Shown in pieces: positions 48,907 through 64,000 of a stretch of DNA of 64,000 nt (positions are counted from its first letter, which is position 1; each line of letters opens with the position of its first letter). Under the pieces are notes generated by a model. That model was given only the letters and a program-made list of their open reading frames with translations, ran no database searches and was not told where the DNA came from. The stretch comes from Lachnospiraceae bacterium (lineage in GTDB: Bacteria; Bacillota; Clostridia; Lachnospirales; Lachnospiraceae): positions 107,489 to 171,488 of the forward strand of contig JAFWZV010000015.1 of assembly GCA_017517305.1 (NCBI GenBank). Direction: 5' to 3'. The translations under genes and the position numbers were made by a program.

Positions 48907-50442
48907 TTATTGGGACATCAAGACAACCGTTTCAACATGCCCACTATGTCCAAACTGATCTACTACAGCGACTTTCTCTAGCTTAAAGCCCTTCTCAACT
49001 AGTATCTTCACGTCTCTAGCCAATGTTGCCGGATCACAGCTAACATACACAAGTCTCTTAGGTGCCATAGCGTGTATGGTGTCAAGAAGCACACTATCGC
49101 ATCCCTTTCGTGGAGGGTCCACAACTATTACGTCAGGATGCTTACCAGTAGCTGTTGCGTCACTACAATCTGTAGCACTGTCACCTGACAAATTACTAAC
49201 TCCTCCAAGCTCTCCACGATAAAAGGCTGGCACAACCTCCTCGGCCTTGCCACAGAAAAACTCAGTGTTGGTCAAATTATTTACCCTTGCATTAACCTTT
49301 GCATCCTCAATTGCCTGGGGAACTATCTCAACTCCATACACTTTACCCGCCTTTTTCGCCAAGCTAAGGGAAATGGTTCCGATACCACAGTACATATCCC
49401 AAACCACTTCATTGCCAGATAAATCAGCATACTCCACCGCCTTGTCATAAAGCACCTTGGTTTGAGTAGGGTTTACCTGATAGAAGGACATAGGGGATAT
49501 ATTAAACTTAATATCACCTATATAATCGGAAATGTAATCCTCACCCCATAGGGTTTTACATTTATCCCCTAGTATTCGATTGGTTTTGTCTCGGTTAATA
49601 TTTATACTTAAGCTGGTAAGCTTAATTTTAAGGAAGCTTTCCTTAGTTTCAGCACACTTAAGTTCTTGGTTCTGATTATACCTCTCCACAGCCTTTTCAA
49701 CTGCAGCCTTTAGCTCCTTCTCACAGCTCATATCTCCCACAAACTTACCTATGCCATTACCATTGATAATAAGGCACACCATAAGCTCACCGGTTACAAA
49801 TCCCACTCTGGTAAGGATATGTCTAACTAATCCCTTGTGAGCCTCCTCATCGTATATAAACACACCTGTCTTATCCTGCCACTTCTGTAACCAAGGACGA
49901 AGCTCTGCCACTATATAATCATTTACAGGATGACCGATATGACACTGCTCCAAATCTATAATACTGTGGGTTCTTCCTGCGTAAAAGCCTATCTGCACCT
50001 TGCCATCTCTATCTAACCCTACCGGAAACTGCATCTTGTTTCTAAAGCTGTAAGGCTTGTCCATACCGTAAATAGGCTCCATAATATCAGTCACATCAGC
50101 AATTCCGCCAATTCTCTCTAAGCAGCTTTTAACCTTGTTCCACTTGTAATCAAGCTGCTTCTCATAGTCCATGTGCATAATAGAACAGCCACCACAGCGT
50201 CTGGCATTTGGACACACCGGCTCCACCCTGTATGGCGAAGGTGTAATAACCTCCATAAGACGACCGTAGGCATAATTTTTCTTCACCTTTATAAGCTTAA
50301 CACTGGCAACATCACCGATTACAGCATCCTTTACGAATACTGCAATGCCCTTGTCAGAGCCCTCTTGGTAAATGTGTCCGATGCCCTCACCGTCATTGCC
50401 TATATCTTCAATTGTAATTTCATATACGTCGTTTTTCTTCAT
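48907..50442 (-). CDS. rlmD: RlmD-type 23S rRNA (uracil-C5)-methyltransferase with TRAM domain
   Basis: A 511-residue enzyme. A TRAM domain (about 5-65: YEITIEDIGNDGEGIGHIYQ) precedes the 4Fe-4S cysteines in CPNARRCGGC. SAM site: VVWDMYCGIGTISLSLA. Catalytic region: YVSCDPATLARDVKILV. About 60 residues longer than usual because of an insertion at about 240-270 (before the PTQTKVLYDKA block) and one before DVIVVDPPRKGCD. Two family members in one window (other: 4573-5763, lacking TRAM) suggest different target uridines. Confidence 0.93.
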   Translation of the reverse strand: MKKNDVYEITIEDIGNDGEGIGHIYQEGSDKGIAVFVKDAVIGDVASVKLIKVKKNYAYGRLMEVITPSPYRVEPVCPNARRCGGCSIMHMDYEKQLDYKWNKVKSCLERIGGIADVTDIMEPIYGMDKPYSFRNKMQFPVGLDRDGKVQIGFYAGRTHSIIDLEQCHIGHPVNDYIVAELRPWLQKWQDKTGVFIYDEEAHKGLVRHILTRVGFVTGELMVCLIINGNGIGKFVGDMSCEKELKAAVEKAVERYNQNQELKCAETKESFLKIKLTSLSININRDKTNRILGDKCKTLWGEDYISDYIGDIKFNISPMSFYQVNPTQTKVLYDKAVEYADLSGNEVVWDMYCGIGTISLSLAKKAGKVYGVEIVPQAIEDAKVNARVNNLTNTEFFCGKAEEVVPAFYRGELGGVSNLSGDSATDCSDATATGKHPDVIVVDPPRKGCDSVLLDTIHAMAPKRLVYVSCDPATLARDVKILVEKGFKLEKVAVVDQFGHSGHVETVVLMSQ

Positions 50443-50540
50443 GAAAGTGCTGTTCCTTTATTACTACTATTTTTCTAAGCTAATTCATAGCTCTAACCTA
50501 TCTTTTCTAAGTATATTTTCACTATATTAATTACTTCAAA

Positions 50541-52772
50541 TTAATGAATCTCCTCAAAGTATCCTGTTATAGTTATGGGATATGCCGGCATAACATAACC
50601 CTCTAATGCTTTTATATCAGCTTCTACCCAATCCAGATTAATCTTATCTCCATTAAAATCTGTAATTTCATATCTGTCAAGCTCATATTCAAGCTTTGGT
50701 TTATCATGCAAACGAATTACACTATCCTCTACCAGATAGATATAATTCCCATAGTCATATCCATTAAGATGATATGTTGTCTGCACATCTCCATCAACGC
50801 CGGTTGTGGCCACCCTATAGTATGGAAGATACAACATAATATATTCATCATCACCATCAAGATGCTTCTCAAAATAAGCCTTTGGATACGCGCCTGCAGT
50901 ATACTTATGCTGTGATTCGTCATACTCAGATATGTTAAGGTTAGCTTTAAAATAAAAATTATCTACAACTATACAATTAACATCCTTTAAAGACTGTCCC
51001 TGGTCAGCAGTTATCTTTATATCAGCGATATAACAAAGGTTATTCTCGGATGCTATGCTCTGTCCGTAATATGCTGCCTTCCCGGTTTCAACATCATATA
51101 TTCTCCAGCCTACACATTTTCCTGTGCATACATCATTTTCATCTATAGGACCAATGTTATCCAGAATCTCACCAGGACGAAATACCTCATAGCCTAACTC
51201 CAGACGCTTTAGAGACATATCATTATACACACCCACATCAAAATATATCTCAATCAAAAGTGCTTCATGGGCTTCTTCACTGCTATTGTAAAACATAGAA
51301 TCCTTAGATGTGCCCTTAAGCTCCACTCGCTCTACATCTACACCATCCACCGTAACCGGAACATCATCTGTAGCTACATATGGTATGGGAAATGAAACCT
51401 TTACTGTAACCTTATATTTTCCACCATATCCTATAATTTCATTATCATCTATATACTCATAATCACCTGTTCCAGTATACTTTTCTATATATTGCTCCCA
51501 ACGGATTGATTCAATTTTATATCCGTTATTTTCAACTATATTCACATCACCTACCATATCGCCTATTCCGCAGGACATGCTAAGGTCAATGCTTTCTACA
51601 TACTTTTCCTGACTATCTGCATCACCATTTTCTGCAGCTACACTAATGCAAGCATTCTTCACCTGCTCAGTATTGGCAGTTTCATACTCTAGCTCATAAT
51701 AGTATATAGGTGAGCCTGATGATAGCATAGAAGTATCATTTATCTGTCTTAGAGTAAGCCCATCCTGGTTAAGCTTTTCCTCTACGCATGTCGCAAAAAA
51801 TCTTCCATCTCCCAGCTTATCCGATACCTTATTACTTGATTCTTTATCCCTATTATTATATTCCAAGCCAAATGTTTCACTCAAACTACCATAATCCTCA
51901 AAATAAGGATATGCTCCCGTTGATGCATCAATTTTATGATATGAAAGCTCTATATCTATGCTTTCATCACAGAACCTTAGCAGATTCTCCCAGTCATCCT
52001 CGCCACGCTTAAAGCTTTCATATTCCTGCTCCAACTCAGTCACGCTATATTCTCTTCCTGAGCTTCCATATAAATTGACAAACTCCACCTTAACTGTGGC
52101 ACGATTGTCCTCTATACCATGAAGATGCCCAAAGCATAGCTCTATCTTATCCTCACTTACCTGTTTGCATTCTTCTCCAGCATCTACCACTCCATTTATG
52201 GTATCAGGCAAATTAAGGGCAAATGCTATAGCCACCCCTAATAATATAACACTAATTTTCTTTCCTGCCTGCTTTAATACCTCCAATTCATAGTCACAAT
52301 CCTCCGCTATGACCTCTACTTCTATATTCTTATATGCCTTGCTATTATAAATCACTGAGAATATGGCAAATATAATGGCACATAACAATAGTACATTAAG
52401 AAGGCTAAAGCTCTTCATACAAAACATAGTGACCAAACAATATATTGCACCTGCTATCCCTTGAACGGTAACAGCTACATTCGTAGCAAAAAGTTCACCC
52501 TTCTCACCTGTGTTACTATTCATATCCATCTGTGTATGCAGATGAACAGCTCCACATATAAAGGTAATTATTGCCAATATATTATTAAGCTTACCAAAAG
52601 CTGCCGGCCACAAAAACTCCTGATAATATTCTCGCTGTATAAGCCCCTGTGCCAAGCATACTATATCAATATGATTATGATTTAAGATTAAACATACTAC
52701 AAAAATAAGAAGAAAGATAATGCTCCATATATCTCTGATTAATTTCTTTATATTGATAGTTTTTTTCTCCAT
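50541..52772 (-). CDS. Five-helix membrane protein with large outside region (paralogue A)
   Basis: A 743-residue protein with helices near 15-31, 60-76, 97-115, 120-142 and 172-192 and everything after 195 outside. The conserved module (KVEFVNLYGSSGREYSVTEL, then W in DDWENL) stands at about 230, and an Ala-Cys motif (NACISVAAEN) at about 365. Beta-rich domains follow (YKVTVKVSFPIPYVATDDVP; YIADIKITADQGQSL) and the end is AYPITITGYFEEIH. Same length and order as paralogue F (58991-61132), including CFGHLHGIEDNRATVKVEF. No enzyme, sortase or adhesin motif. Last gene of the array. Function unknown. Confidence 0.8.
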   Translation of the reverse strand: MEKKTINIKKLIRDIWSIIFLLIFVVCLILNHNHIDIVCLAQGLIQREYYQEFLWPAAFGKLNNILAIITFICGAVHLHTQMDMNSNTGEKGELFATNVAVTVQGIAGAIYCLVTMFCMKSFSLLNVLLLCAIIFAIFSVIYNSKAYKNIEVEVIAEDCDYELEVLKQAGKKISVILLGVAIAFALNLPDTINGVVDAGEECKQVSEDKIELCFGHLHGIEDNRATVKVEFVNLYGSSGREYSVTELEQEYESFKRGEDDWENLLRFCDESIDIELSYHKIDASTGAYPYFEDYGSLSETFGLEYNNRDKESSNKVSDKLGDGRFFATCVEEKLNQDGLTLRQINDTSMLSSGSPIYYYELEYETANTEQVKNACISVAAENGDADSQEKYVESIDLSMSCGIGDMVGDVNIVENNGYKIESIRWEQYIEKYTGTGDYEYIDDNEIIGYGGKYKVTVKVSFPIPYVATDDVPVTVDGVDVERVELKGTSKDSMFYNSSEEAHEALLIEIYFDVGVYNDMSLKRLELGYEVFRPGEILDNIGPIDENDVCTGKCVGWRIYDVETGKAAYYGQSIASENNLCYIADIKITADQGQSLKDVNCIVVDNFYFKANLNISEYDESQHKYTAGAYPKAYFEKHLDGDDEYIMLYLPYYRVATTGVDGDVQTTYHLNGYDYGNYIYLVEDSVIRLHDKPKLEYELDRYEITDFNGDKINLDWVEADIKALEGYVMPAYPITITGYFEEIH

Positions 52773-52785
52773 TATGCAATACCCC

Positions 52786-54108
52786 CTAATTTATTCCTGA
52801 AGGTGTTAGCCATATGTACACAGTCAAATTATCATGTTCAACCTCTACCTCAAGTTCCTCGTATTCTACTCCATTGATTGCAACCTTAGCATCCTTTGAA
52901 AACGCATAAGGCATACCGCAATATGCTTCAAGTTGCACTCTATACATTGTTCCTTCTCTAATTACATCTACCGGTTCACTTCCACTCTGAAATCTTTCAC
53001 CTACACTGCCAGCCTCATACCATAGCATTGTAGAAGGATAAAATTTATCACTGTCCACAATTACTGACACATCCGACTTATCTCCACTTTCCGGTATACT
53101 AATATGGAATACCAGCTCCTCTTCTTCCCCTACAAGCTCGATAGGTACCTGATTGGTAATACATTCATATACATAACGGCACGCTTCATCTAGCTGTTCA
53201 TCACTGGCAGTATCAACATCAATATCCTTCAATATAAGATATCTACATGTATAAACCCAAAAGCCTTTTGCCGGATTACCATTATAGTCATAATCAGAAA
53301 AGCTTACAGGGGTTTCTCTAAACGCAAACACATCGTTCAAAAACTCTATACAATACCACAAAGTGTACCATGAGCCTTCTTTATTCTTAAAATTAGCTAT
53401 ACTCTCCTCTAATTCCTCAATAGTAAAGCTCTTGCCATCCTGATTAAAATAATTTACGAACTGTAATCTGTTATATATAAGGGCATGATCATCTCGAAGC
53501 AGCCCCCATATTTCACCCTCATAAATCTCACAAAATTCCAGGTATTTTTCATCCCACTTATCATCTATATCACGACCATAATATATACCACCAGCTACTG
53601 TAAATACCACAGTAACAATCACACCCAAAAGCGCCTTCTTCATACCGGTATGCTCACTTCTTATCTCCTTGTACTTCGTAAAATATATAAGATTTATCAC
53701 AAAAAGCACTAGCAAAAGTGCACCCATAATATAAGCAGTAATCACACTCCAGCACATCACATGTAAAGTAAGCTGAGTTGTAAGTCCATAGCCTACAAAT
53801 GCAGTTGCCAGAAAACCTATACTCATATTCTCCAGCCAGATTCCATCCCTGTTCTTCCCGTCAAAGCTTTTCCAGCCAAAAATCATAATTAATGCACCAA
53901 GCACTATCAACGCACCAAAGAAATAATTATGAGTTTTATAAACTGAAGGTACATAGTAATTCTCTACAAAATAATTTATCTCCTCAAACTTATGAATTCC
54001 TGTTGCACCTAATAAACCCTTACCGGTAAGCAGGATAAATCCCATTATAGCCGAGCAGGTCAAAACCAGCTTATTTACTATGAATTTACATTTGTTGTAC
54101 CATTTCAT
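52786..54108 (-). CDS. Five-helix membrane protein, short outside region (paralogue B)
   Basis: A 440-residue protein. Helices near 13-30, 62-80, 95-112, 117-145, 160-178. Conserved module: LQFVNYFNQDGKSFTIEEL with W in GSWYTLW. Ala-Cys motif: DEACRYVYECI. One beta domain: YRVQLEAYCGMPYAFSKDAK followed by VAINGVEYEELEVEV and VYIWLTPSGIN at the end. It is closest to paralogue G (61143-62558): both start MKW, share GW(K)SF...DGI, and end in a domain with IWxxPG. Gap to paralogue A is 13 bases. Confidence 0.8.
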   Translation of the reverse strand: MKWYNKCKFIVNKLVLTCSAIMGFILLTGKGLLGATGIHKFEEINYFVENYYVPSVYKTHNYFFGALIVLGALIMIFGWKSFDGKNRDGIWLENMSIGFLATAFVGYGLTTQLTLHVMCWSVITAYIMGALLLVLFVINLIYFTKYKEIRSEHTGMKKALLGVIVTVVFTVAGGIYYGRDIDDKWDEKYLEFCEIYEGEIWGLLRDDHALIYNRLQFVNYFNQDGKSFTIEELEESIANFKNKEGSWYTLWYCIEFLNDVFAFRETPVSFSDYDYNGNPAKGFWVYTCRYLILKDIDVDTASDEQLDEACRYVYECITNQVPIELVGEEEELVFHISIPESGDKSDVSVIVDSDKFYPSTMLWYEAGSVGERFQSGSEPVDVIREGTMYRVQLEAYCGMPYAFSKDAKVAINGVEYEELEVEVEHDNLTVYIWLTPSGIN

Positions 54109-54128
54109 AACACTAATTCTCCTTAGCT

Positions 54129-56222
54129 TTAATCCTCTCTAAACGTCCACTTTATCTCCACTGGATATGTCTTCATATAAAGCTTATTATCCTCTATCTC
54201 TATCTTAGAATCCTTTGGAGTTCCAGTCATTAAACATCTTGATTCATATCCAGCCACCTCATAACCCTCATCTGGCTGTGGATTCATAGTTACAACAGTT
54301 CCATGAGCTGCAAATGCCACATCTGAGGTTATAATTCCATGCTCCCCATACATTTCCACTGCATAGAAATATATATTAACAATTATCTCACCGTCGCTAT
54401 CCATCTTATAGTAGCCGGTAATATCCACCATCGGTGGTTTTTTATCTATTCTTTCAAGCTCAAATCCATTATATGTAACCTTAAGCTCCTCAGAAAATGC
54501 ATAGCCTGTGTCAGGATGAATTCGTAATCTGGCACAATACACTGGATTTTTATGGACAAATGTCTTAACAGAATCCTTACCCTCATACTCAGGATTACAG
54601 TACTTATAATTTACCTTTTCTGCATCAAAATACAGCCAGTTCAAATCCTGACATAATACATTTTCCCCTAAGGAAATCTCAGTTGCATCCATTCTATCAG
54701 CTACATTTCCCGCAAGTACAAGTCCTGGAATCTCTTTAATTTCCACAGTATCAACCTGCTTAACCTGAGATATCTCCTCCTTATCACCAACTATTATCCA
54801 TACATACATCTTAATAGCATCACCAGACACATCATACTCTATTTCTTCATAGTCTAAGCCCTTAAGCTCAGCTGTAATATCTTCATTAAGCTTATATGTA
54901 ACCTCTGGATATATAGCAATTGTTGCCTTATACACACTGTTGTCCTGAATTATTATATTGGTATTCGTATCAGGTGTTGAATACTCTATCCAATCATTAC
55001 TACCCACATATGGTACCTTTTCCCACCTGGAAATAACTGCATACGTCAAATCATAATCATGATTTAAAGTATAATTAACCTCTTGTCCTATACCCATCCC
55101 CTCATCATAGGTAACAGTTATCACATCATTTCTTTCCCCTATGGTTTCTAAAGGCTTTTTGGTCAATATTATATCGTGGACGAATACACATGCCTCATCC
55201 ACCTTTTTCCTAACCTCTTCATCCTCAAGGTTTGGATAATCTATTCCTATATGTTCTAGCTTATCATACACCATAGATCTATACAGCTCAAAATTATTCC
55301 TTCCAGAAGCATCTTCAGCATTAAAATATTTAGATAACTCATACTTTTCTTCAATCTCATCGTATAACTCATTAAATTCCATTATGCTATACCAAGAGCC
55401 TGTGTAGTAATACAGATTATTAACTGCTGTCTCCATCTCTTCTGTAGAAAATGTTCTGCCTTCATCATTAAACAGGTTAACATACTGAAGGGCTATGTAA
55501 TTACTAGGACTATCCGTAACCTTTTCGTCCGGTTCTAGGAACATAACGTCGATGAGCTTTCCATACTCTCTTGCAGAATATTTGTCTGATAAGGTCTTCA
55601 CCTTTGCCTTAATGTCCCACAAAGGAGCTACAGTAACGGCTCCAATTACCAACATTAAAATCACAATAACTCCAACCCCTGCACTATCTGGATTTGGTGA
55701 AAATTTAGACTCATTTGCATAATAATTCTTAATTACATTCACCAGTACAAAAACATAGTATACAAAGCTAAGTACAAGTACAATTCCCACCAAATCTATT
55801 CTTCTAAAAATTATCATATCCTCTATGATAAATGTAGCTATAACCACAAGCTCAGCTATAATAGCCATGTTGTAACGCACTACACCACTTCTTAACTTTT
55901 GGTTATAGTCCTGTCCCACAAAGGCAAATAATGTAGTAGCAAGACCAAATGCTGCACCCAAAATCAGCATATCCACTATAAAATTCTCTGTCACATATCT
56001 TTTATAAAACTCCTTATACTCAGGAGCTGAAATTATTATTCTTCCAACAGAATGCATTACCATCAGTGAAAACACAAGCAAGGTACTTGCTAAGCTTAGC
56101 CCCTTGCTAATTGTGCACAGCTTTTTACTATTTTTTTCATACCAAGTTAGATTGTCTGTATCAGACTGCGCTGACTGACTTTCATCTATTATATTTTCAG
56201 CATCTATTTTGTCTTTTCCCAT
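54129..56222 (-). CDS. Five-helix membrane protein with InlB-like repeat end (paralogue C)
   Basis: A 697-residue protein with five helices between about 40 and 205. Module: LQYVNLFNDEGRTFSTEEM with W in GSWYSIMEF. Ala-Cys motif: DEACVFVHDII. Beta domains: YKATIAIYPEVTYKLNEDIT, LKGLDYEEIEYDVSG and VYIW after it, then a second such unit. The end (EHGIITSDVAFAAHGTVVTM, PQPDEGYEVAGYES) is a divergent InlB B-type repeat, found in many Gram-positive surface proteins. Gap to B is 20 bases. Confidence 0.8.
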   Translation of the reverse strand: MGKDKIDAENIIDESQSAQSDTDNLTWYEKNSKKLCTISKGLSLASTLLVFSLMVMHSVGRIIISAPEYKEFYKRYVTENFIVDMLILGAAFGLATTLFAFVGQDYNQKLRSGVVRYNMAIIAELVVIATFIIEDMIIFRRIDLVGIVLVLSFVYYVFVLVNVIKNYYANESKFSPNPDSAGVGVIVILMLVIGAVTVAPLWDIKAKVKTLSDKYSAREYGKLIDVMFLEPDEKVTDSPSNYIALQYVNLFNDEGRTFSTEEMETAVNNLYYYTGSWYSIMEFNELYDEIEEKYELSKYFNAEDASGRNNFELYRSMVYDKLEHIGIDYPNLEDEEVRKKVDEACVFVHDIILTKKPLETIGERNDVITVTYDEGMGIGQEVNYTLNHDYDLTYAVISRWEKVPYVGSNDWIEYSTPDTNTNIIIQDNSVYKATIAIYPEVTYKLNEDITAELKGLDYEEIEYDVSGDAIKMYVWIIVGDKEEISQVKQVDTVEIKEIPGLVLAGNVADRMDATEISLGENVLCQDLNWLYFDAEKVNYKYCNPEYEGKDSVKTFVHKNPVYCARLRIHPDTGYAFSEELKVTYNGFELERIDKKPPMVDITGYYKMDSDGEIIVNIYFYAVEMYGEHGIITSDVAFAAHGTVVTMNPQPDEGYEVAGYESRCLMTGTPKDSKIEIEDNKLYMKTYPVEIKWTFRED

Positions 56223-56257
56223 CTATTTCTCCTTATAATATTACTGTTACAACAGAA

Positions 56258-56641
56258 TTATTCTCCCTGATTCTCCTTATGCTTTCTACGCATACTCTCA
56301 GTCTCTATATCACGTTGCTCATTAAGCTCCTCCTGCTTAATCTCCCAGTGAATAAGGAAGGTTAATGTTGCTCTTAAAGCAATAATTCCCGCAACTATAG
56401 CAATCTCCTTCCACTCTCTTACAATTACTGTTCTAAGAATCTCACTGCCAAGCTTAAACTCAAGACCCATGGCAAGACCCTTAGCCAGATAAATTCTTGT
56501 ATCAGGTTTCCTGCGAACATACTTAGTCAAGCTTACCAAGCTGGTCCAGATTATAATGCCAACTCCGATATACTCGAATATAAGAATTCCCGCTTCCACT
56601 ATATATTCTAATACTGTTTGTAAAACCTCTAAAATCTCCAT
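56258..56641 (-). CDS. DUF1622 membrane protein
   Basis: A 127-residue protein with three helices (EYIVEAGILIFEYIGVGIII; LKLGSEILRTVI region; IAIVAGIIALRATLTFLI) and an Arg-rich loop. The pattern YLAKGLAMGLEFKLGSEILRTV plus REWKEIAIVAGIIALRATL is that of DUF1622. The ATG at 56641 follows AAGGAGG; the longer frame from 56683 does not. It is the only gene of the array that is not a paralogue of the others, so it could be a shared partner or ion-conducting accessory. Function unknown. Confidence 0.85.
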   Translation of the reverse strand: MEILEVLQTVLEYIVEAGILIFEYIGVGIIIWTSLVSLTKYVRRKPDTRIYLAKGLAMGLEFKLGSEILRTVIVREWKEIAIVAGIIALRATLTFLIHWEIKQEELNEQRDIETESMRRKHKENQGE

Positions 56642-56710
56642 AGCTATCCTCCTTGTCTTAAGTATGCCCTTAACCTGCAACATTAATTACATAACCTATT
56701 TGTCTATTCA

Positions 56711-58957
56711 CTATTCCTTCTCATATACCGGAGTAATCTTTATAGGTGCCGCCGGCATAACAAATGTATTATTCTCTATAACCGGCTCCCATTTTTCGAA
56801 TGTAGCTCCGTTAACTAAATCTATCTCCACTTCATATTCCTTAAGCTTATAGCCTCTGGCAGGATTAGGCTCAAGAGTTATAGTAGTTCCCGCTACTGCA
56901 TAATCGAAACTTACCTGAAGGTCTCCATGCTCGGAATCTCCTATGTCGATTCTGTAATAATATGCGCTAAATTTTATTCCGGATTCCCCCCATAAGTTTG
57001 TAAATCCGCCACTCCAAAAATCATTCAAATCATCATAATATTTCGGAAGCTGCTTTCCATTAACACTACCCATTGTATCCTCTGAAAAGCCATAACCAGT
57101 TTCACTTAATAGTGGAGCATATAACTTATACATCAGTGGCTCCTTAGAAAATGTAGCCCCTTCTTCATAATCATTAGATTTATAATGAGCTGACCATGAC
57201 ACATCTTTTACCACAACATTTGGATTATTAGGATTAACTACATCTAATCCTGACACAGCTCTTATACTATCGCCCTCACAAATCCCCTGCGGAACATCAA
57301 ACTTTAAGTCCTCTATAACCTGATAGCTTCCATCATAGTCACCTGTTGTCACCCAAATATACACAGGAAAAGCTCCACGCTCAGTCTCTAAGGACTCATC
57401 CCTGTATCCAAAAAGCTCCTCATCTATGCTTATATTCTTGTAATCTATTCCCTTTACAGAAATGTTTATATCCTCAGAAAATCTATGCTGCAAATCAGAA
57501 GCAATCATAAGCTTTAACAGATAGGCACTGTCATCCTTAATTACAAATTTTTTCTGAGATTTATAGTTATGTACTTCTAAAGTCTTGTCAGAACCAACAA
57601 AGCTTACTCTTGATATATTATATATGTAGGCACTATACGCACCTGAGTTGTCACTACAAACCACACTAAGATTAGGAGATTCTCCCACAACCAGATTGCC
57701 ATTTACAGTGATTTCAATGTCTTCATCATACACTTCAACACTTTTCTCTGCTTCAAAATGTTCATCTACCTTCTGACAAGCATTAGCCATTGCCTCCTCT
57801 GGAATTTCAGGCTGACCATTTTCAAAGCCATAACAGTATCCATCGTAATAAAGCTGCTTTTGAACCCATTGCTCATAGTCATTCATAGCATATGCCGTCA
57901 TATTATAATTATCAAATAACGAAGTACGGGCAAGTTCATAATAATCATCACTAAAATCCTTATACACCTTCCAGGAGGAGCCATCATCATTATAAAAATT
58001 ATGAAAGCCTTCCATCACTTCTCGGTAATCATAGCATTTCCCATCTGTGTTATACTGATTATAAAAGTGAAGCTTCAGATATATTCTGTTATCTGTATCC
58101 ACCAAATCATCCTGATCAACTACCCATAGTTGCACCTTATATACATTATAATATCTCTCCTCTCTAGCCCTTAATTCAGTCATGTCATTCTTAACATTTT
58201 CGGCTCCCATAGCAACTATCAATGCTACACCAATAATACCGAAAATGTACGAGCCAATCCTTTCCACGGATTTATCCGGATGCTCTGTGGCAAAATCCTT
58301 AGCTGCTAATGGCAGTAACAATAAACAAATGACACCTATTAACACATACACCAACGATGTGACAGACAATATCTTATATAAGCCAATCATAATCGCACCA
58401 TATAAAATCATAGATGCACCTAGAGTAATAAGTGTAAAATTAATAATGAAATTACAAGCTACAGGACACTTATCACTTTCATATCTGGCTGGCACTAGCA
58501 CATTGCATATCAAAAGTACCATGGCAGCAGCAGCGAGAATAACCTTAAACTCCAGCATTACTTCGCTTGTATCCACAGCCAGATACTTATCTCGAAAGTT
58601 CATATACATGTCTGTATACTCCGGTCTTCCCAGCTTGCCTAGAAATAGCACGCCCTTTGTAAGACCTAGCTTTGCTGTCACCCAGCAGGCTACGGTAAAT
58701 GCACATAATAAGCCTGTTACCAGCTTTTTATGCTCCACATACCAGCCAGTGAATTTCCCCCTCAAGGATTTCTTAGCATTTTTATCTTTCTTCGTTTTTT
58801 TACCCACCTTGGATTTTTTCTTTTTTACTGTCTCTTCCTCTGTTTTTTCTTTATTTGTTTCATTTACATATGCTTCATCTGTCTCACTCACTTGGAGTTT
58901 TTCCTCCTCCATATTCTTTTCTTCCACGCTTTTATTTTCTATATTTGTATCTCCCAT
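56711..58957 (-). CDS. Five-helix membrane protein with charged N-terminal tail and InlB-like end (paralogue E)
   Basis: A 748-residue protein. The first 75 residues are a cytoplasmic tail, acidic (EEKNMEEEKLQVSETDEAYV) then Lys-rich. Five helices follow to about 255. Module: LHFYNQYNTDGKCYDYREV with W in SSWKVY. Ala-Cys motif: ANACQKVDEHF. Beta domains: YLLKLMIASDLQHRFSEDIN and VYIWVTTGDYDGSYQ, then an InlB-like end (EHGDLQVSFDYAVAGTTITL, NPARGYKLKEYEVE). Similar to paralogue C in order. The tail is unique to it and could bind a nucleic acid or lipid head group. Confidence 0.8.
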   Translation of the reverse strand: MGDTNIENKSVEEKNMEEEKLQVSETDEAYVNETNKEKTEEETVKKKKSKVGKKTKKDKNAKKSLRGKFTGWYVEHKKLVTGLLCAFTVACWVTAKLGLTKGVLFLGKLGRPEYTDMYMNFRDKYLAVDTSEVMLEFKVILAAAAMVLLICNVLVPARYESDKCPVACNFIINFTLITLGASMILYGAIMIGLYKILSVTSLVYVLIGVICLLLLPLAAKDFATEHPDKSVERIGSYIFGIIGVALIVAMGAENVKNDMTELRAREERYYNVYKVQLWVVDQDDLVDTDNRIYLKLHFYNQYNTDGKCYDYREVMEGFHNFYNDDGSSWKVYKDFSDDYYELARTSLFDNYNMTAYAMNDYEQWVQKQLYYDGYCYGFENGQPEIPEEAMANACQKVDEHFEAEKSVEVYDEDIEITVNGNLVVGESPNLSVVCSDNSGAYSAYIYNISRVSFVGSDKTLEVHNYKSQKKFVIKDDSAYLLKLMIASDLQHRFSEDINISVKGIDYKNISIDEELFGYRDESLETERGAFPVYIWVTTGDYDGSYQVIEDLKFDVPQGICEGDSIRAVSGLDVVNPNNPNVVVKDVSWSAHYKSNDYEEGATFSKEPLMYKLYAPLLSETGYGFSEDTMGSVNGKQLPKYYDDLNDFWSGGFTNLWGESGIKFSAYYYRIDIGDSEHGDLQVSFDYAVAGTTITLEPNPARGYKLKEYEVEIDLVNGATFEKWEPVIENNTFVMPAAPIKITPVYEKE

Positions 58958-58990
58958 ACTTATTCTCCATGATAAAAATTCGCTAGCCTA

Positions 58991-61132
58991 TTATTCCTCC
59001 GGCTCAAAATATCCGGTAACAATTATAGGTTCTCCCGGCATATAAATGGTAATATCTGTAGCCGAATTTTTCTCCACATCTATCTCATTACCGTCAAGAT
59101 CTGTTACAACATTTTTCACATAATCATATCCCAGATTTGGTCTCTGATAGATTCCAAATCCTGCCCCCTCTGGCAGGTACACGTTATTGGTATAGTTAAA
59201 CTGATTCCACAAATCACCATATTCACCTGTAGTGTAGGCCATGAAGTAAGGCACGTATGCTAAGATATATTCCTTTCCATTTTCATTAACCTTTTCAAAA
59301 TATGCCTTAGGATATTCCCCTGCCTTATAGTCATGTATGGATGAATCATACTCATAAATACTTACTTTGTCTCCGTAATATACAACCTCCACATCATCAA
59401 AGGCTATGCCCTGTTCAGGAGTAACCTTTATAGTTGCAATGTAGCACAGATTGTCTCCTGAGAACTCTTCCTCCTCGTAATCTGTAGCTTGACCGGTCTT
59501 AATATCGTACACCTTCCAACCTATGTACTCAGAGTCACAAACTCTGCTTTCATCCCAGCCCTTGCAATCAACCACATCAGTGCCAGGCTCTGTGCTCTCA
59601 AGACCAATCTGAACACCCTTAAAGGTCTGCTCTTCAACACCAGCCTCCTCAAGCTTAATATCAACCTTTATCTCATTAAGCTCTCCATCATACTTCTCGT
59701 CTATCTCTATGCTCTTATATTTTACTCCTTCTAAGCTAAGGGCCAGATTATCTGCCACATCATAGGCCAAAGGTAGCTTAAAATACAGAGAAATCATATA
59801 TTCCTCGTCGTGCTCATATCTTGTCTCACTATTTATGTAGCTATAGCTATCCGCACCCACTGCATAAAACCAATCTATCCTATCTATATCAAGTCCTTTA
59901 GACTCTGTAATTTCCATCTCTGATATTCTCATACCAGGATTTGCATTAATATATAAATCTATGGACTCCACCTTCTCAATTAAAGGTGCGGCTCCATCCA
60001 CAGGCTCCTTCTTAGCAGCAAAGCTATGACAGGCTTCAACCACCTGCTCCTTAGTTGCGCTCTCATATTCAAGCTCCAAAAAGTTAGGAAGGTCCTCATT
60101 TAAATCAGCACTGTCGTTAAGCTGTCTTAAAGTAAGCCCCTTAAGATTAAGCTCATCCTCCACACACACTATGAAGTAGTGAATGTCATAAAATTTATCA
60201 TTTCCGTCTTTTTCTCTCTGTTCCTTTTCTTCACGCTCATATTTTTCCTCTGGAAAATAATATTTCCACAGAGAGTTGATATTGACATCATACAAAAGTA
60301 TGTTTCCTAGCTCTGATAATGAGCTTTGTGTTTGTAGCTCTATATCTAAACTTTCCTCACAAAAATACCAGAGATTACTCCATGAACCCTTACCAGTCTT
60401 AAAGTTAGTATACTCCTGTTCAAGCTGCTCTAAAGTGTACTCCCTGTCTGAGTTACCATACATATTAACAAATTCCACCTTCACAGTGGCAAGGTTTTCC
60501 TCAAAATCCTGAATATGTCCAAAGCAAAGATCAACCTTTGCCTTAGATACATTCATATATTCCTCTCTGGCCAAAAATGCATTCTTCGCCATTGTATTAA
60601 AAAGCAAAAGACCTAAAACCACAATAATTACAAGCCATACATTTAGACGCATTCCAACTCCGCCCCATATGTCGTCTATGGTTACGTCCTCATCTATATC
60701 CTTATACTCCTTATAATTATGTTTTATGCTCATAATAGCGAATATTACAACAGCCACAAATGCTATCACACTTAAATTAAAAAGCTTTAATCCAAATGTA
60801 CAAACTAAGGTATAGGTTACACCCAGCGCACTAATCATACCAAGTGCCGAATTCTTAATTGCAAGCTCCTCTTTGGCACCAACCTTCTCGTCTAAATCCA
60901 TAAGACGCTCTGAATGGTAAAAGGCAGCCGTAATTAACGGTATAATAAAAAATATATTTACATAAGTATAAAGCTTTGGCCACAGGTGATTAACATAGTA
61001 AGCCTTATCCTCTACCAGCTTCGCCAAACACATGCTCTTATCATATAGCGGTATAGCAAGAAGCATTATAATCACAAGCACTACAAGTATAATTATCCAT
61101 ATAATATCCTTAATATTTCTTTTCTTCTTCAT
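58991..61132 (-). CDS. Five-helix membrane protein with large outside region (paralogue F)
   Basis: A 713-residue protein, closest to A: helices near 10-28, 55-72, 93-113, 118-140, 163-182; then LCFGHIQDFEENLATVKVEF and module VEFVNMYGNSDREYTLEQL with W in GSWSNLWYF. Ala-Cys: EACHSFAAKK. Beta domains: YMISLYFKLPLAYDVADNLA, LCYIATIKVTPEQGIAFDDV. The C-terminal end, YMPGEPIIVTGYFEPEE, matches that of A (YVMPAYPITITGYFEEIH). Start follows AGGAGG. Confidence 0.8.
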   Translation of the reverse strand: MKKKRNIKDIIWIIILVVLVIIMLLAIPLYDKSMCLAKLVEDKAYYVNHLWPKLYTYVNIFFIIPLITAAFYHSERLMDLDEKVGAKEELAIKNSALGMISALGVTYTLVCTFGLKLFNLSVIAFVAVVIFAIMSIKHNYKEYKDIDEDVTIDDIWGGVGMRLNVWLVIIVVLGLLLFNTMAKNAFLAREEYMNVSKAKVDLCFGHIQDFEENLATVKVEFVNMYGNSDREYTLEQLEQEYTNFKTGKGSWSNLWYFCEESLDIELQTQSSLSELGNILLYDVNINSLWKYYFPEEKYEREEKEQREKDGNDKFYDIHYFIVCVEDELNLKGLTLRQLNDSADLNEDLPNFLELEYESATKEQVVEACHSFAAKKEPVDGAAPLIEKVESIDLYINANPGMRISEMEITESKGLDIDRIDWFYAVGADSYSYINSETRYEHDEEYMISLYFKLPLAYDVADNLALSLEGVKYKSIEIDEKYDGELNEIKVDIKLEEAGVEEQTFKGVQIGLESTEPGTDVVDCKGWDESRVCDSEYIGWKVYDIKTGQATDYEEEEFSGDNLCYIATIKVTPEQGIAFDDVEVVYYGDKVSIYEYDSSIHDYKAGEYPKAYFEKVNENGKEYILAYVPYFMAYTTGEYGDLWNQFNYTNNVYLPEGAGFGIYQRPNLGYDYVKNVVTDLDGNEIDVEKNSATDITIYMPGEPIIVTGYFEPEE

Positions 61133-61142
61133 GCCACACCTC

Positions 61143-62558
61143 CTAGTTATCCTTGCCTGGAATCACCCAGATATCAGCATATACAGTATCATTTCCTCTA
61201 ACAGAGGTTTTTACTTCCTCATAGATAACACCATCTATACTAACCAATGGTAGCTTTGACTCTACCGATGCATAGTAAGGAAGTACAAGCTGCATCCTTA
61301 CGCGAGCATAATATATTTTACCATCCTCTAAGGTAGTAGCTGGCTCCAAACCATTTATACTCCAATCACCTACATTATCCATCTCATACCAATCGTTAAT
61401 GTAAGCTCGGTAGCCTTCTCCCTCCCATGAGACTTTGATATCGTCCACATTTTTTGACTCAGGAATATCAATATGCACCACAAGCTCTCCCTCATCATCG
61501 CCTAAGCGAATCATAGGAGTCTGGCCTACATACATATCATACACATACTGACATGCCTCATCTAACTGCTGGTGAGTAGCTTCAGATGAAGACAAACCAT
61601 CTGCAAGAAGCTTGTCTTTTACTTTTGATACAAATACAGCGTAAGTGTCCTGCCATTCGTAGTCTAAGCTACTGAATACATTTGTCTGATTATATTTTTT
61701 ATTAGTAGAATAAAAGTACTCAAGACAGTACCACAAATTATCACAGTTCTTTATACTGTGATAATTATCTTCGCTTATATAGTTCTTTATCTCCTGCTCT
61801 ACAGCCTCATAGGATATAGTTCTTCCCTCAGAATTAAAATAATTAACATACTTTACTACTATATAATCATTTTCATTAATTTCATCATTTAACAGAAAGC
61901 TTACATCTTCGTATCTTTCCCAAAAATCCTCCAACGCATCTTTACTTATGCGACTATAGAATTTAGAAAAATCAACTACACTAAGCACAGCAAAACCCAG
62001 AGCGATAATAGAAGGTATTCCCACCCTGAGTAGCTTTTTTATCCTATTCTTCTTAGCATCTTCCTCGTCTTCGTCTTTGATAATTCTTTTATTTTTGCTG
62101 TAATGTATTATATTCTTTACAAATAAAGCCAACATTAAAGCACCTACAGAAAATGCAGGCACAACCTCCCATGAGAAAGCCTTAAGTAAAAATATAGTTG
62201 TAAATCCATATCCTAGCATTGTAGCCGAAAGCAAGCCCACTCCAGCATTGTATAGTACAATGCCATCCGAGTATCTATTCTTAAATCTTTTCCAACCACA
62301 TAAAATTATGAATACACCAACTACACAAAGCACAAAAAACAAAGAATTATATGGTGTCTTAATTTCCTTTAGAAAATATTCCTCCAAAAAACATTTTTCC
62401 GCATCACTAGAGGAAATAGCTATGGCATTATATGCATTTAAACTATCCCTCTTAATACCGGTAAGGTTTGACATGGAATATAAAACCACGCCAAACATAG
62501 TTCCAAAGAATATAACTAACTTTCCCCATATTGACTTATTTTTAAAATGCCATTTCAT
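61143..62558 (-). CDS. Five-helix membrane protein, short outside region (paralogue G)
   Basis: A 471-residue protein, closest to B: MKW start, helices near 12-29, 73-91, 101-123, 130-152, 178-196, the shared inner loop GWKRFKNRYSDGIVLYNAGV and GYGFTT. Module: VKYVNYFNSEGRTISYEAV, with W in NLWYCLEYF. Ala-Cys: DEACQYVYDMY. Beta domain: YARVRMQLVLPYYASVESKL, VSIDGVIYEEVKTSVRG, ending ADIWVIPGKDN. First gene of the array, 78 bases after yhaM, start after GGAGG. Ten bases before paralogue F. Confidence 0.8.
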   Translation of the reverse strand: MKWHFKNKSIWGKLVIFFGTMFGVVLYSMSNLTGIKRDSLNAYNAIAISSSDAEKCFLEEYFLKEIKTPYNSLFFVLCVVGVFIILCGWKRFKNRYSDGIVLYNAGVGLLSATMLGYGFTTIFLLKAFSWEVVPAFSVGALMLALFVKNIIHYSKNKRIIKDEDEEDAKKNRIKKLLRVGIPSIIALGFAVLSVVDFSKFYSRISKDALEDFWERYEDVSFLLNDEINENDYIVVKYVNYFNSEGRTISYEAVEQEIKNYISEDNYHSIKNCDNLWYCLEYFYSTNKKYNQTNVFSSLDYEWQDTYAVFVSKVKDKLLADGLSSSEATHQQLDEACQYVYDMYVGQTPMIRLGDDEGELVVHIDIPESKNVDDIKVSWEGEGYRAYINDWYEMDNVGDWSINGLEPATTLEDGKIYYARVRMQLVLPYYASVESKLPLVSIDGVIYEEVKTSVRGNDTVYADIWVIPGKDN

Positions 62559-62636: not shown

Positions 62637-63575
62637 TTATTCTGTAATTCTCACATTGCTATCAAACATCTTAATATATCCAAGCCAACCTGACTTATCT
62701 TGATTGCTCTTTATAATTTCGGTAAAGGTCTGAAGCTTAGCATCCATATTGTCTGCATGAGCAAGAGCCATAGCCTCAATAATTCCAGGCTTCTTAGGTG
62801 AACCGAACTCAAGCTCTCCATGATGAGCTAAGATGCAGTGAATAAGCTCATCTGCTAATACCTTAGGGAAACCCTCTATGGTCTTTATTCTCTCCTTAAG
62901 CATCATAGCTCCCATAACTATATGACCTACCAGCTGCCCCTCATCAGTGTAGTCATTTTCAGGAAATGTTGATAACTCGTCTACCTTTCCTATATCATGG
63001 AATATGGCAGCAGTCACAAGTAAATCTCTCTTAATAACCGGGTAAGCTTCAGCTATATAGTTGCAAAGCTTTGCCACAGAAAGAGAATGCTCCAAAAGTC
63101 CACCCATAAATCCATGATGTATAGACTTTGCTGCTGAGTGCATCTTAAAGCGCTTAATAAAATCTTTGTCATCCATGAAGAAGCTATTAAGAAGTGCCTT
63201 AAGATGTGAATCTTTAACAGTTCCAATTAAATCAGTTAACTCCTTATACATTTCCTCCACATTTTTCTCTGAGCAAGGCATGTAATCACTCATTACATAC
63301 TCTCCCTCATCAGCAACTCTCACGCGTCTTACATTAAGCTGCAATGTGCCATTAAAGCTTGTAACCTGGGCATCAATCTTTATATAATTCATAGGTTCAA
63401 AGTGAGCTATACCACTATTTAGGTCCCAGATTTTAGCATCCACTGTTCCTGTCTTATCCTGAAGTGTCATAGAATAATAATTCTTACCTGCTTTAGTCTG
63501 AGCTGTAACCTTTGTCTTGCAAAGATACACCTCAGAAATCATATCTCCCTCGCGCAATGTGTTAATGTAATTCAT
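62637..63575 (-). CDS. yhaM: YhaM-family 3'-5' exoribonuclease
   Basis: A 312-residue protein. Residues about 15-95 are an OB-fold (KNYYSMTLQDKTGTVDAKIW, TSFNGTLQLNVRRVRV) and the rest an HD domain: HHGFMGGLLEHSLSVAKLCN, AAIFHDIGKVDELSTFP, GHIVMGAMMLKERI, CILAHHGELEFGSPKKPG and HADNMDAKL supply the metal ligands. It trims RNA from the 3' end and takes part in mRNA turnover. Upstream gene of the membrane-protein array and on the same strand; co-transcription is possible but a role in common is not evident. Confidence 0.93.
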   Translation of the reverse strand: MNYINTLREGDMISEVYLCKTKVTAQTKAGKNYYSMTLQDKTGTVDAKIWDLNSGIAHFEPMNYIKIDAQVTSFNGTLQLNVRRVRVADEGEYVMSDYMPCSEKNVEEMYKELTDLIGTVKDSHLKALLNSFFMDDKDFIKRFKMHSAAKSIHHGFMGGLLEHSLSVAKLCNYIAEAYPVIKRDLLVTAAIFHDIGKVDELSTFPENDYTDEGQLVGHIVMGAMMLKERIKTIEGFPKVLADELIHCILAHHGELEFGSPKKPGIIEAMALAHADNMDAKLQTFTEIIKSNQDKSGWLGYIKMFDSNVRITE

Positions 63576-63689: not shown

Positions 63690-64000
63690 GGGCCTATGAG
63701 TGATTTTCCTCTCCACAGGCCCAGCTTCTGTCTGTTGCACCTTCACCTCTTCGACTTTCACGGGCCTATGTGCAACTTATCTTCTCTCAGGCCCATGTCC
63801 GCGCTCTCTACAGCTTGCTTTTTCTCACAGCCTGGGCCTATGAGTGATTTTCCTCTCCACAGGCCCATGTCCACTCTCTCTACAGCTTGCTTTTTCTCAC
63901 AGTCTGGGCCTGTGACTGATTTTCCTCTCCACAGGCCCAGCTTCTGTCTGTTGCTCCTTCACCTCTTCGACTTTCACGGGCCTGCGAGCAACTTATCTTC
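63690..64000. repeat. 72-bp tandem repeat array with GGGCCT...AGGCCC hairpins
   Basis: GGGCCT starts at 63690, 63762, 63834, 63906 and 63978, an exact 72-base period running off the edge. Each unit begins with a 33-base hairpin (GGGCCT to AGGCCC) followed by a 39-base spacer. Two versions of hairpin and two of spacer alternate (a-X-b-Y-a-Y-a-X-b). Longest stem: CTGGGCCTGTG with CACAGGCCCAG. The block is clearly richer in GC than its surroundings. Its function is unknown. Confidence 0.9.
63696..64000 (+). CDS. Possible repeat-encoded partial protein
   Basis: The plus-strand frame is open from upstream of the repeats to the edge of the window with no stop, and 72 bases is 24 codons. From the ATG at 63696 it reads MSDFPLHRPSFCLLHLHL, with MSDFPLHRP, STACFFSQ and LFDFHGP recurring. 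All three minus-strand frames contain stops. No ribosome binding site precedes the ATG. It may be a coding repeat or an open frame produced by the repeat. Confidence 0.22.
   Translation, partial: MSDFPLHRPSFCLLHLHLFDFHGPMCNLSSLRPMSALSTACFFSQPGPMSDFPLHRPMSTLSTACFFSQSGPVTDFPLHRPSFCLLLLHLFDFHGPASNLS

What the first reader, a model, noticed from the sequence alone, without database searches (positions are those of the whole stretch)
50541..62558. Array of six paralogous membrane proteins plus one DUF1622 protein
All six have five N-terminal helices and a large outside part that starts with the same motif, hydrophobic-x-[FY]-x-N-x-[FY]-x-x-x-[GD]-[RK] (VNYFNQDGKSF, VNLYGSSGREY, VNLFNDEGRTF, YNQYNTDGKCY, VNMYGNSDREY, VNYFNSEGRTI), followed by a Trp, an [EN]AC motif and beta domains with Y-x-[VA]-x-[LVI]. 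I know no characterised family with this architecture. A 12-kb single-strand run with small gaps should encode one multi-part envelope system. This is the best candidate for a previously undescribed system here.
Basis: partly seen in the sequence, partly recalled or inferred. Interest (0 to 1): 0.8.

Follow-up and report, generated by a model that had tools for sequence, protein, structure and literature searches.

The report
Orphan immunity array against T7SS effectors
This bacterial chromosome carries a row of six related membrane proteins sharing a domain with proteins encoded inside a bacterial weapon-export system of its relatives, and they likely serve as a swappable stock of shields against neighbouring bacteria's predicted toxins.

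Summary
No Pfam, NCBIfam, PADLOC or PHROG family covers them; two end in a Flg_new_2 repeat. In 7 of 8 genus genomes with clear members the array lies at yhaM-rlmD (the eighth is a bare fragment); copy number runs from 0 to at least 8. DUF1622 is also there where the array is absent, so it is a neighbour. The array is a recombination mosaic under purifying selection. Key finding: in relatives the alpha domain also occurs inside type VIIb secretion loci, in membrane-anchored proteins directly behind effector-position genes and, in two genera, at the C-terminus of effector-type proteins. At the pfl locus a relative has a T7SS island with such proteins; this genome has only two membrane-anchored alpha proteins there. 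Best reading: an orphan immunity island, like the S. aureus tsaI arrays but unrelated in sequence. Protection is untested. "One multi-part envelope system" is unlikely: species with one copy or none exist.

The parts
61143..62558 (-). 5-helix membrane protein, 471 aa (P0007), first gene of the array; closest paralogue P0002
58991..61132 (-). 5-helix membrane protein, 713 aa (P0006); closest paralogue P0001
   Evidence: AlphaFold model (pLDDT 85.2, pTM 0.64)
56711..58957 (-). 5-helix membrane protein, 748 aa (P0005) with a Lys/Glu-rich N-terminus; closest paralogue P0003
54129..56222 (-). 5-helix membrane protein, 697 aa (P0003); its alpha+beta1 block is diverged against G015 between similar flanks
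52786..54108 (-). 5-helix membrane protein, 440 aa (P0002), minimal form: membrane part, alpha domain, one beta domain
   Evidence: AlphaFold model (pLDDT 87.3, pTM 0.78)
50541..52772 (-). 5-helix membrane protein, 743 aa (P0001), last gene of the array
61515..61913 (-). alpha domain of P0007
60002..60538 (-). alpha domain of P0006 (with a long insert)
57740..58129 (-). alpha domain of P0005
55152..55568 (-). alpha domain of P0003
53143..53523 (-). alpha domain of P0002
51621..52148 (-). alpha domain of P0001 (with a long insert)
56717..56950 (-). Flg_new_2 / InlB B-repeat domain at the C-terminus of P0005
   Evidence: Pfam PF18998, 26.4 bits vs cut-off 23.6
54138..54347 (-). Flg_new_2 / InlB B-repeat domain at the C-terminus of P0003
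   Evidence: Pfam PF18998, 24.6 bits vs cut-off 23.6
56258..56683 (-). DUF1622 protein, 141 aa (P0004): a neighbour inside the array, judged not to be part of the system
   Evidence: PF07784 E 1.9e-17; present at the locus in G011 without the array
62637..63575 (-). yhaM-like 3'-5' exoribonuclease, conserved upstream boundary of the locus
   Evidence: best NCBIfam hit NF010007 YhaM E 9e-57, 192 bits, below the equivalog cut-off 460
48907..50442 (-). rlmD-like 23S rRNA methyltransferase, conserved downstream boundary
   Evidence: TIGR00479 above cut-off
49820..54470 (.). block 98-100% identical in DNA to relative G015 (150-base bins), flanked by more diverged DNA: recent exchange of the rlmD 5' part, P0001, P0002 and the end of P0003
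   Evidence: dS of P0001/P0002 0.015 vs 0.49 for yhaM and 0.25 for rlmD

Best explanation
The array encodes six related membrane proteins, each with five predicted membrane helices and a helical domain that is homologous to a domain found in the effector-position and the immunity-position proteins of type VIIb secretion (T7SSb) loci, and it likely works as an orphan immunity island whose predicted outward-facing domains would bind and neutralise effectors delivered by neighbouring bacteria. Shown here: paralogy; a clade-restricted array of variable copy number at one site; mosaic identity to a relative; homology of the alpha domain with membrane-anchored proteins encoded directly behind T7SSb effector-position genes and with the C-terminus of effector-type proteins; effector-less relatives of those membrane-anchored proteins in this genome at the very site where a relative has a T7SSb. 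Predicted: five helices with the N-terminus in and the large C-terminal part out; the fold. Inferred, untested: that the effector-position proteins are secreted toxins, that the alpha domains of effector and membrane protein contact each other, and that the six proteins protect the cell. The six copies would then be different specificities, kept or lost according to which rivals are met.
For: (1) Alpha-domain homology across architectures. A profile of 16 five-helix alpha domains scores 10 of 11 single-helix or effector-type alpha domains at E 7.5e-7 to 0.03 (the eleventh at 4.4; best of 550 shuffles 0.41). Profile against profile: 97.7% probability, score 74.2, against at most 2.0%, score 18.2, in 100 column shuffles and at most 0.2% for five helical T7SS decoy families. 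(2) Context. In G008:C11 the alpha proteins follow effector-position genes (14-nt gap in one module, 38-nt overlap in another) in a locus with EssC (TIGR03928, 1153 bits vs cut-off 778), YukD, and WXG100-like and YwqH/Lap-like genes (these two below cut-off). In G165, another genus, the same module lies directly before YukD and EssC (1121 bits): a 608-aa effector-position protein with a C-terminal alpha domain (5.6e-12 among the ORFs of the locus; 9e-10 at database size 20,000 with a different profile), then 5 nt on a 202-aa lipoprotein-like alpha protein (2.9e-8 and 6e-5). In G106 effector-like and 1-helix alpha proteins alternate. (3) Orphan pattern. The 9 alpha proteins detected in this genome (14 of 29 first-look candidates scored) are all membrane-anchored, none effector-like; no LXG protein at E <= 0.001. 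Between grcA and pflA, G008 has about 26.6 kb including the T7SS; this genome has 2.1 kb with two alpha proteins 34% and 32% identical to G008's effector-adjacent 195-aa protein. (4) Array behaviour (0 to at least 8 copies, mosaic) is what is reported for T7SS immunity arrays: variable copies for esaG, tsaI and tipC, recombination for esaG and tipC (PMC9484751, PMC10765036). (5) Orphan polytopic membrane immunity islands exist: ExiCD (PMC12744356); tandem five-helix immunity: TsaI (PMC7456083).
Against: No five-helix member was seen next to a T7SS effector: where flanks are known they lie at yhaM-rlmD, beside mnmG/gidB, or (G106) at a further place without T7SS genes. Of 11 LXG-protein neighbourhoods fetched (two of them on contigs under 4 kb), only 1 (G008:C11) holds alpha proteins. 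An effector C-terminus homologous to its putative immunity protein is not what the immunity pairs in the papers read here look like. The link from five-helix proteins to the G165 effector is transitive: the five-helix-only profile does not detect it nor its partner, and the genome-scale search reported only the partner (1.1e-5). The 1-helix profile misses P0003 and P0005. The C-termini of the two G008 effector-position proteins are not detected as alpha domains by the profiles (only a partial pairwise similarity of the 607-aa one, E 1e-5). dN/dS is 0.12-0.28 for all whole-gene or gene-piece comparisons in the array, that is, purifying, not positive, selection. Recombination, seen here, is reported as little for tsaI (PMC9484751), the closest analogue.
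Confidence: 0.55

Rival explanations
1. The alpha domain is a general docking module (binding a wall polymer, a surface protein or the secretion machine) that T7SSb effectors, their neighbours and the five-helix proteins have all borrowed; the array is then a set of surface anchors, sensors or effector-capturing receptors rather than immunity proteins.
Against: Partners sit in the immunity position directly behind the effector gene in two genera, and effector-less relatives lie at the T7SS site; copy-number variation is what immunity repertoires show.
Confidence: 0.25
2. Diversifying surface antigens, adhesins or phage receptors/decoys: the array presents variable outer domains to hosts, other cells or phages.
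For: Large predicted outer part with beta domains; mosaic with a diverged ectodomain block (P0003 alpha+beta1: 74-75% identity and dS 0.7-1.3 between flanks at 90-97%).
Against: No positive selection; no LPxTG-like sortase motif in any of the six; alpha-domain kinship points to T7SSb; no match of P0002 in phage or plasmid records, no PHROG for the six.
Confidence: 0.1
3. One multi-subunit envelope machine made of the six proteins and DUF1622.
For: One strand, small gaps, ribosome-binding-like sequences before most genes.
Against: Relatives have 1, 2, 6, at least 8 or no copies at the same site; DUF1622 is there without the array in G011.
Confidence: 0.07

Closest known systems
tsaI (DUF443) arrays of Staphylococcus aureus, immunity to the T7SS toxin TspA (PMC7456083 passages; PMC9484751 abstract and passages)
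   Same: [quoted passage not shown] immunity to a T7SS effector shown for TsaI.
   Different: No DUF443 match here; TsaI is predicted N-out/C-in, whereas the array proteins are predicted N-in with a 240-550-residue C-terminal outer part; tspA lies next to tsaI, but no effector lies next to this array; little recombination is reported for tsaI, mosaic exchange is seen here.
ExiCD of staphylococci, polytopic membrane immunity pair against extracellular EsxX (PMC12744356; abstract and two result sections read)
   Same: Membrane immunity acting from the outside, encoded as orphans in antitoxin islands of strains without the toxin.
   Different: Both proteins are needed together; sequences not compared here.
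TipC, membrane-anchored immunity to TelC of streptococci (PMC6193138; passages read)
   Same: N-terminal membrane anchor with an outward inhibitory domain, several paralogues, encoded with the effector: the layout of the 1-helix alpha proteins.
   Different: TipC is a mixed alpha/beta crescent with a seven-stranded sheet; the alpha domain here is all-helical in the models, and the array proteins have five helices.
TilA / DUF576 tandem lipoproteins, immunity to TslA (PMC10730906; passages read)
   Same: Lipoprotein immunity in variable-copy arrays; the G165 partner is lipoprotein-like.
   Different: No Pfam match at all for the G165 partner.

Membership tests
T7SSb immunity proteins (functional class) | Encoded directly next to an effector gene (cognate pairs; orphan copies lack this by definition) | tested here: not met
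   No effector-like gene flanks the array. For its 1-helix alpha-domain relatives it is met in G008 and G165.
T7SSb immunity proteins (functional class) | For orphans: homologous to a protein encoded in the immunity position of a T7SSb locus | tested here: inconclusive
   Homology shown for the alpha domain only, not for the whole five-helix protein.
T7SSb immunity proteins (functional class) | Neutralises an effector | not testable with these tools
   Needs co-expression or binding assays.
T7SSb immunity proteins (functional class) | Non-identical tandem copies, varying in number between strains (a common, not universal, feature) | tested here: met
   0 to at least 8 copies; mosaic with G015.
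DUF443 / TsaI | DUF443 domain | tested here: not met
   No DUF443 match at E up to 1 in any of the six proteins.
DUF443 / TsaI | Five membrane helices | tested here: met
   Two AlphaFold models and hydropathy; prediction only.
DUF443 / TsaI | N-out, C-in topology | tested here: inconclusive
   Charges of the N-terminus (no acidic, 3 and 5 basic residues in the first 8 of P0002 and P0006) and the large C-terminal domain suggest the reverse; no topology experiment.
TipC | Outward domain with three helices and a seven-stranded sheet on a single membrane helix | tested here: not met
   Five helices and an all-helical alpha domain in the models.
ExiCD | Sequence or fold kinship with ExiC or ExiD | not tested
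   Sequences were not fetched.
Flg_new_2 / InlB B-repeat domain | Pfam PF18998 above its cut-off | tested here: met
   P0003 and P0005 only, C-terminal domain only.
Claudin/TARP/connexin-type four-helix membrane fold | Structural match well above chance | tested here: inconclusive
   [not shown]
DUF1622 | Pfam PF07784 above its cut-off | tested here: met
   P0004 only, 63.4 bits vs 24.

The most novel reading that the evidence does not exclude
Weapon and shield use the same domain: T7SSb effectors of these bacteria end in an alpha domain, and target cells display the same domain on membrane proteins that pair with it. The five-helix array is a chromosomal self/non-self recognition repertoire that diversifies by swapping whole ectodomain blocks between species, a kind of bacterial compatibility locus, with toxin and immunity derived from one ancestral domain.
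Probability: 0.27. Interest if true: 0.85.

Novelty: new variant of a known kind. Interest (0 to 1): 0.62.

Why it matters
It would be an undescribed, multi-copy membrane immunity family in Lachnospiraceae, and it comes with a testable partner: a T7SSb effector family in which some C-terminal domains are homologous to the domain on the putative immunity proteins. If the two domains pair, this gives a simple route for how toxin and immunity arise from one another, and a marker for reading which species defend against which in gut communities. It also explains a gene array that the family libraries used here do not name.

Tried and rejected
Phage or plasmid origin: no tblastn match of P0002 in phages or plasmids and no PHROG for the six. 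Known defence system: PADLOC gave nothing for the six proteins. Solved relatives by sequence: nothing below E 0.12 for the alpha domain or 0.19 for the long form. Fold search: no Foldseek match at E <= 0.001 for two models; the four-helix claudin/TARP/connexin resemblance of the membrane part is noted but not used. Citrate-transporter, MATE, NADH-dehydrogenase and similar Pfam/NCBIfam hits are far below their cut-offs. DUF1622 as partner: rejected (G011). Positive selection: not found. The yhaM-rlmD gap as a general hotspot: in G001, G010 and G013 it holds unrelated genes without alpha domains; in at least 13 other genus genomes the two genes lie within about 90 nt of each other by the coordinates. 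Dropped before counting: weak alpha hits in G041, G174, G105, G376, G277 and G141 (not fetched), in G181 and G106:C6 (looked at and judged partial or chance), a 34-aa-frame hit in G011:C86, and G011's two weak profile matches (its 559-aa one showed no Pfam family). A beta-domain match in G268 was fetched and not analysed.

The family- and order-wide searches scored only 3 to 14 first-look candidates per genome, and the protein searches scored about 8,000 candidates each, so relatives may have been missed.
Full report
OBSERVATION. The region holds seven genes on the - strand between a yhaM-like gene and an rlmD-like gene. Six encode related proteins of 471, 713, 748, 697, 440 and 743 aa (in transcription order; the 141-aa DUF1622 gene lies between the 748- and the 697-aa genes). 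Paralogy is certain: three close pairs and significant links between the pairs, with nine invariant columns. AlphaFold models made from alignments of 29 and 36 sequences reach pLDDT 87.3 / pTM 0.78 (440 aa) and pLDDT 85.2 / pTM 0.64 (713 aa). The basic N-termini and the big C-terminal part suggest N-in/C-out; this is a prediction.

DISTRIBUTION. Protein searches found 9 relatives of the 440-aa and 22 of the 713-aa protein in 5.8 billion sequences, with about 8,000 candidates scored each. In the genus, 9 of 37 genomes match at E <= 1e-5; G011 matches only weakly, so 8 have clear members. In a family-wide draw of 397 genomes including this one, one other genome (G106) has a full-length member; five more matched only in the Flg_new_2 region (at most 3 candidates scored per genome). 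A second family-wide search and an order-wide search of 295 genomes added no full-length member. In 7 of the 8 genus genomes array genes lie on contigs that carry yhaM or rlmD; the eighth, G005, has a 3.6-kb contig only. Copy number: 1 in G006 and G016, 2 in G007 and G008, 1-2 in G017 and at least 3 in G005 (both fragmented), 6 here, at least 8 in G015. In G011, whose YhaM is 94% identical, yhaM, DUF1622 and rlmD stand without any array gene. By position DUF1622 lies in this interval in 8 genomes, G011 included. So the array looks like an accessory beside a steadier DUF1622. A seventh five-helix gene of this genome lies between mnmG/gidB and mnmE, with a counterpart (56% identical, beside the same mnmG/gidB) in G017.

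EVOLUTION. Against G015, the block 49.8-54.5 kb is 98-100% identical in 150-base bins, while the flanks and other parts range from 57 to 100%. dS is 0.015 for P0001 and P0002 but 0.49 for yhaM and 0.25 for rlmD. P0003 carries an alpha+beta1 block of 74-75% identity (dS 1.26 and 0.68) between a membrane part at 90% and an end at 97% (40 codons). This is a mosaic, best explained by exchange. All nine gene or gene-piece comparisons in the array (DUF1622 included) give dN/dS 0.12-0.28; sub-parts range from 0 to 0.36, apart from one 180-codon stretch with four changes (0.83), which is uninformative. G015 is a 490-contig draft genome (91% complete, 5% contaminated), so assembly error could add to the mosaic; the rlmD/P0001/P0002 block, however, lies on one contig.

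THE ALPHA DOMAIN LEADS TO TYPE VIIb SECRETION. A search with the alpha domains (alignment A4) found them outside the five-helix proteins. In G008:C11, three proteins with a single N-terminal membrane helix and an alpha domain (324, 322 and 195 aa) lie in a T7SSb locus. That locus has EssC (TIGR03928, 1153 bits vs cut-off 778), YukD (PF08817), WXG100-like and YwqH/Lap-like helical proteins (below cut-offs), an LXG protein (PF04740), and two effector-position proteins of 538 and 607 aa. The first alpha protein of each module follows these two directly, with a 14-nt gap and a 38-nt overlap. In G165, of a third genus, the same module occurs: YwqH-like 171-aa, Lap-like 93-aa (40% identical to G008's) and 97-aa genes, a 608-aa effector-position protein, a 202-aa lipoprotein-like protein 5 nt on, a weakly AAA-like protein, YukD and EssC (63% identical to G008's). 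There the effector-position protein itself ends in an alpha domain (residues 487-600, E 5.6e-12 among the ORFs of the locus), and its neighbour carries one (2.9e-8); the genome-scale search had reported only the neighbour (1.1e-5). In G106, effector-like proteins related to the G008 607-aa protein (phmmer 5e-17 for the N-terminal piece) alternate with 1-helix alpha proteins, and the effector-like C-terminus is an alpha domain; no EssC lies in the 13 kb held there, which ends at the contig end.

CONTROLS FOR THAT HOMOLOGY. A profile of five-helix alpha domains alone scores 10 of 11 single-helix or effector-type alpha domains at 7.5e-7 to 0.03; the eleventh is at 4.4; the best of 550 shuffles is 0.41. 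With 15 full-length targets it finds the G106 effector-like proteins (3e-5, 5e-5) and five single-helix proteins between 4e-5 and 0.03, one at 0.12, but not the G165 or G008 effector-position proteins, the G165 partner, the 322-aa and the 196-aa proteins, and one G106 partner only at 8; the best of 600 shuffles is 1.1. The reverse profile, without any five-helix member, finds P0001 (5e-9), P0006 (2.5e-6), P0002 (1.4e-3) and P0007 (4e-3), misses P0003 and P0005, and finds the G165 effector at 9e-10 and its partner at 6e-5. Profile against profile: 97.7%, score 74.2; 100 column shuffles reach at most 2.0%, score 18.2; the reversed alignment 0.1%; five helical decoys at most 0.2%. In a tree of 30 alpha domains the 16 five-helix ones form one group (97/95), and the G106 effector-like and partner domains group together (100/99); several branches are long, so finer order is unsafe.

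ORPHANS AT THE T7SS SITE. In G008 the T7SS island fills about 26.6 kb between grcA and pflA. In this genome the same interval is 2.1 kb and holds two membrane-anchored alpha proteins (178 and 196 aa; 34% and 32% identical to the G008 effector-adjacent 195-aa protein, E 3e-22 and 1e-20) and a 163-aa protein; G015 and G005 have counterparts. With the improved profile 9 alpha proteins were detected in this genome (14 of 29 first-look candidates scored): six in the array, one orphan, two at the pfl site. All are membrane-anchored and none is effector-like. It has no LXG protein at E <= 0.001, whereas 6 of 38 genomes examined do (5 above the cut-off). Against a simple picture: of the 11 LXG neighbourhoods only one (G008:C11) has alpha proteins, so the alpha domain belongs to a subset of T7SSb modules; and one single-helix alpha protein (G015:C244) lies outside any T7SS-like neighbourhood, judged by eye from its 20 kb.

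MECHANISM. The anatomy fits a membrane-held, outward-facing immunity function: T7SSb effectors reach targets from outside, and known immunity proteins of that kind are TipC (one helix, outward domain), TilA (lipoprotein), TsaI (five helices) and ExiCD (polytopic pair) (PMC6193138, PMC10730906, PMC7456083, PMC12744356). Strings of non-identical immunity copies, also in strains without the toxin, are reported (PMC10765036, PMC12744356), and recombination among them for esaG and tipC, though little for tsaI (PMC9484751). The array matches this behaviour while being unrelated in sequence to DUF443. What is special is that an effector C-terminus and its membrane partner can share one domain, which suggests that they pair through it. 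Inferred, not shown: toxicity, pairing, protection, topology. The main rival is that the alpha domain is a docking module with a common ligand.

VERDICT. Real, not in any family library used here, and best explained as an orphan T7SSb immunity island: a new variant of a known kind. No paper describing this family or alpha-domain T7SS modules was noticed in the listings of searches of an open-access library; the family has no name to search by, so this is weak evidence of absence. Papers seen: abstract and two sections (PMC12744356), abstract and passages (PMC9484751), passages (PMC6193138, PMC10730906, PMC7456083, PMC10765036); PMC8980031 in a listing only.

Noticed in passing
window 63690-63983: Tandem array with a 72-base period (about 4 copies, 69-87% matches) upstream of yhaM; it looks like an intergenic repeat running towards the window end.
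   Followed up: partly
L038 2445-4586 (G015): The orthologue of the 713-aa protein is interrupted in G015 (two open frames of 204 and 497 aa), so single array members can be lost.
   Followed up: no
L049 7187-8608 (this genome, contig 2) and L046 8698-10074 (G017): A seventh, orphan five-helix alpha protein between mnmG/gidB and mnmE, with a syntenic counterpart (56% identical) in G017.
   Followed up: yes
L066 9188-12974 (G106 contig 16): Alternating effector-like and 1-helix alpha genes next to a YchF-like gene, several effector-like frames broken or partial: possibly a degenerating effector/partner series at a contig end.
   Followed up: partly
L118 12564-14893 (G008 contig 11): Upstream part of the G008 T7SS island has a 346-aa protein with an HExxH-like stretch (HEMRH, seen by eye), followed by two similar membrane-anchored or lipoprotein-like proteins; no alpha domain in this stretch.
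   Followed up: no
L098 3283-4890 (G015 contig 299): A 535-aa single-helix alpha protein with a long extra C-terminal part at the pfl site.
   Followed up: no
window 50541-62558: The only DNA-level similarity among the six genes at E <= 1e-3 is a 206-base stretch (70%) between the 743- and 713-aa genes, so the duplications are probably old.
   Followed up: yes
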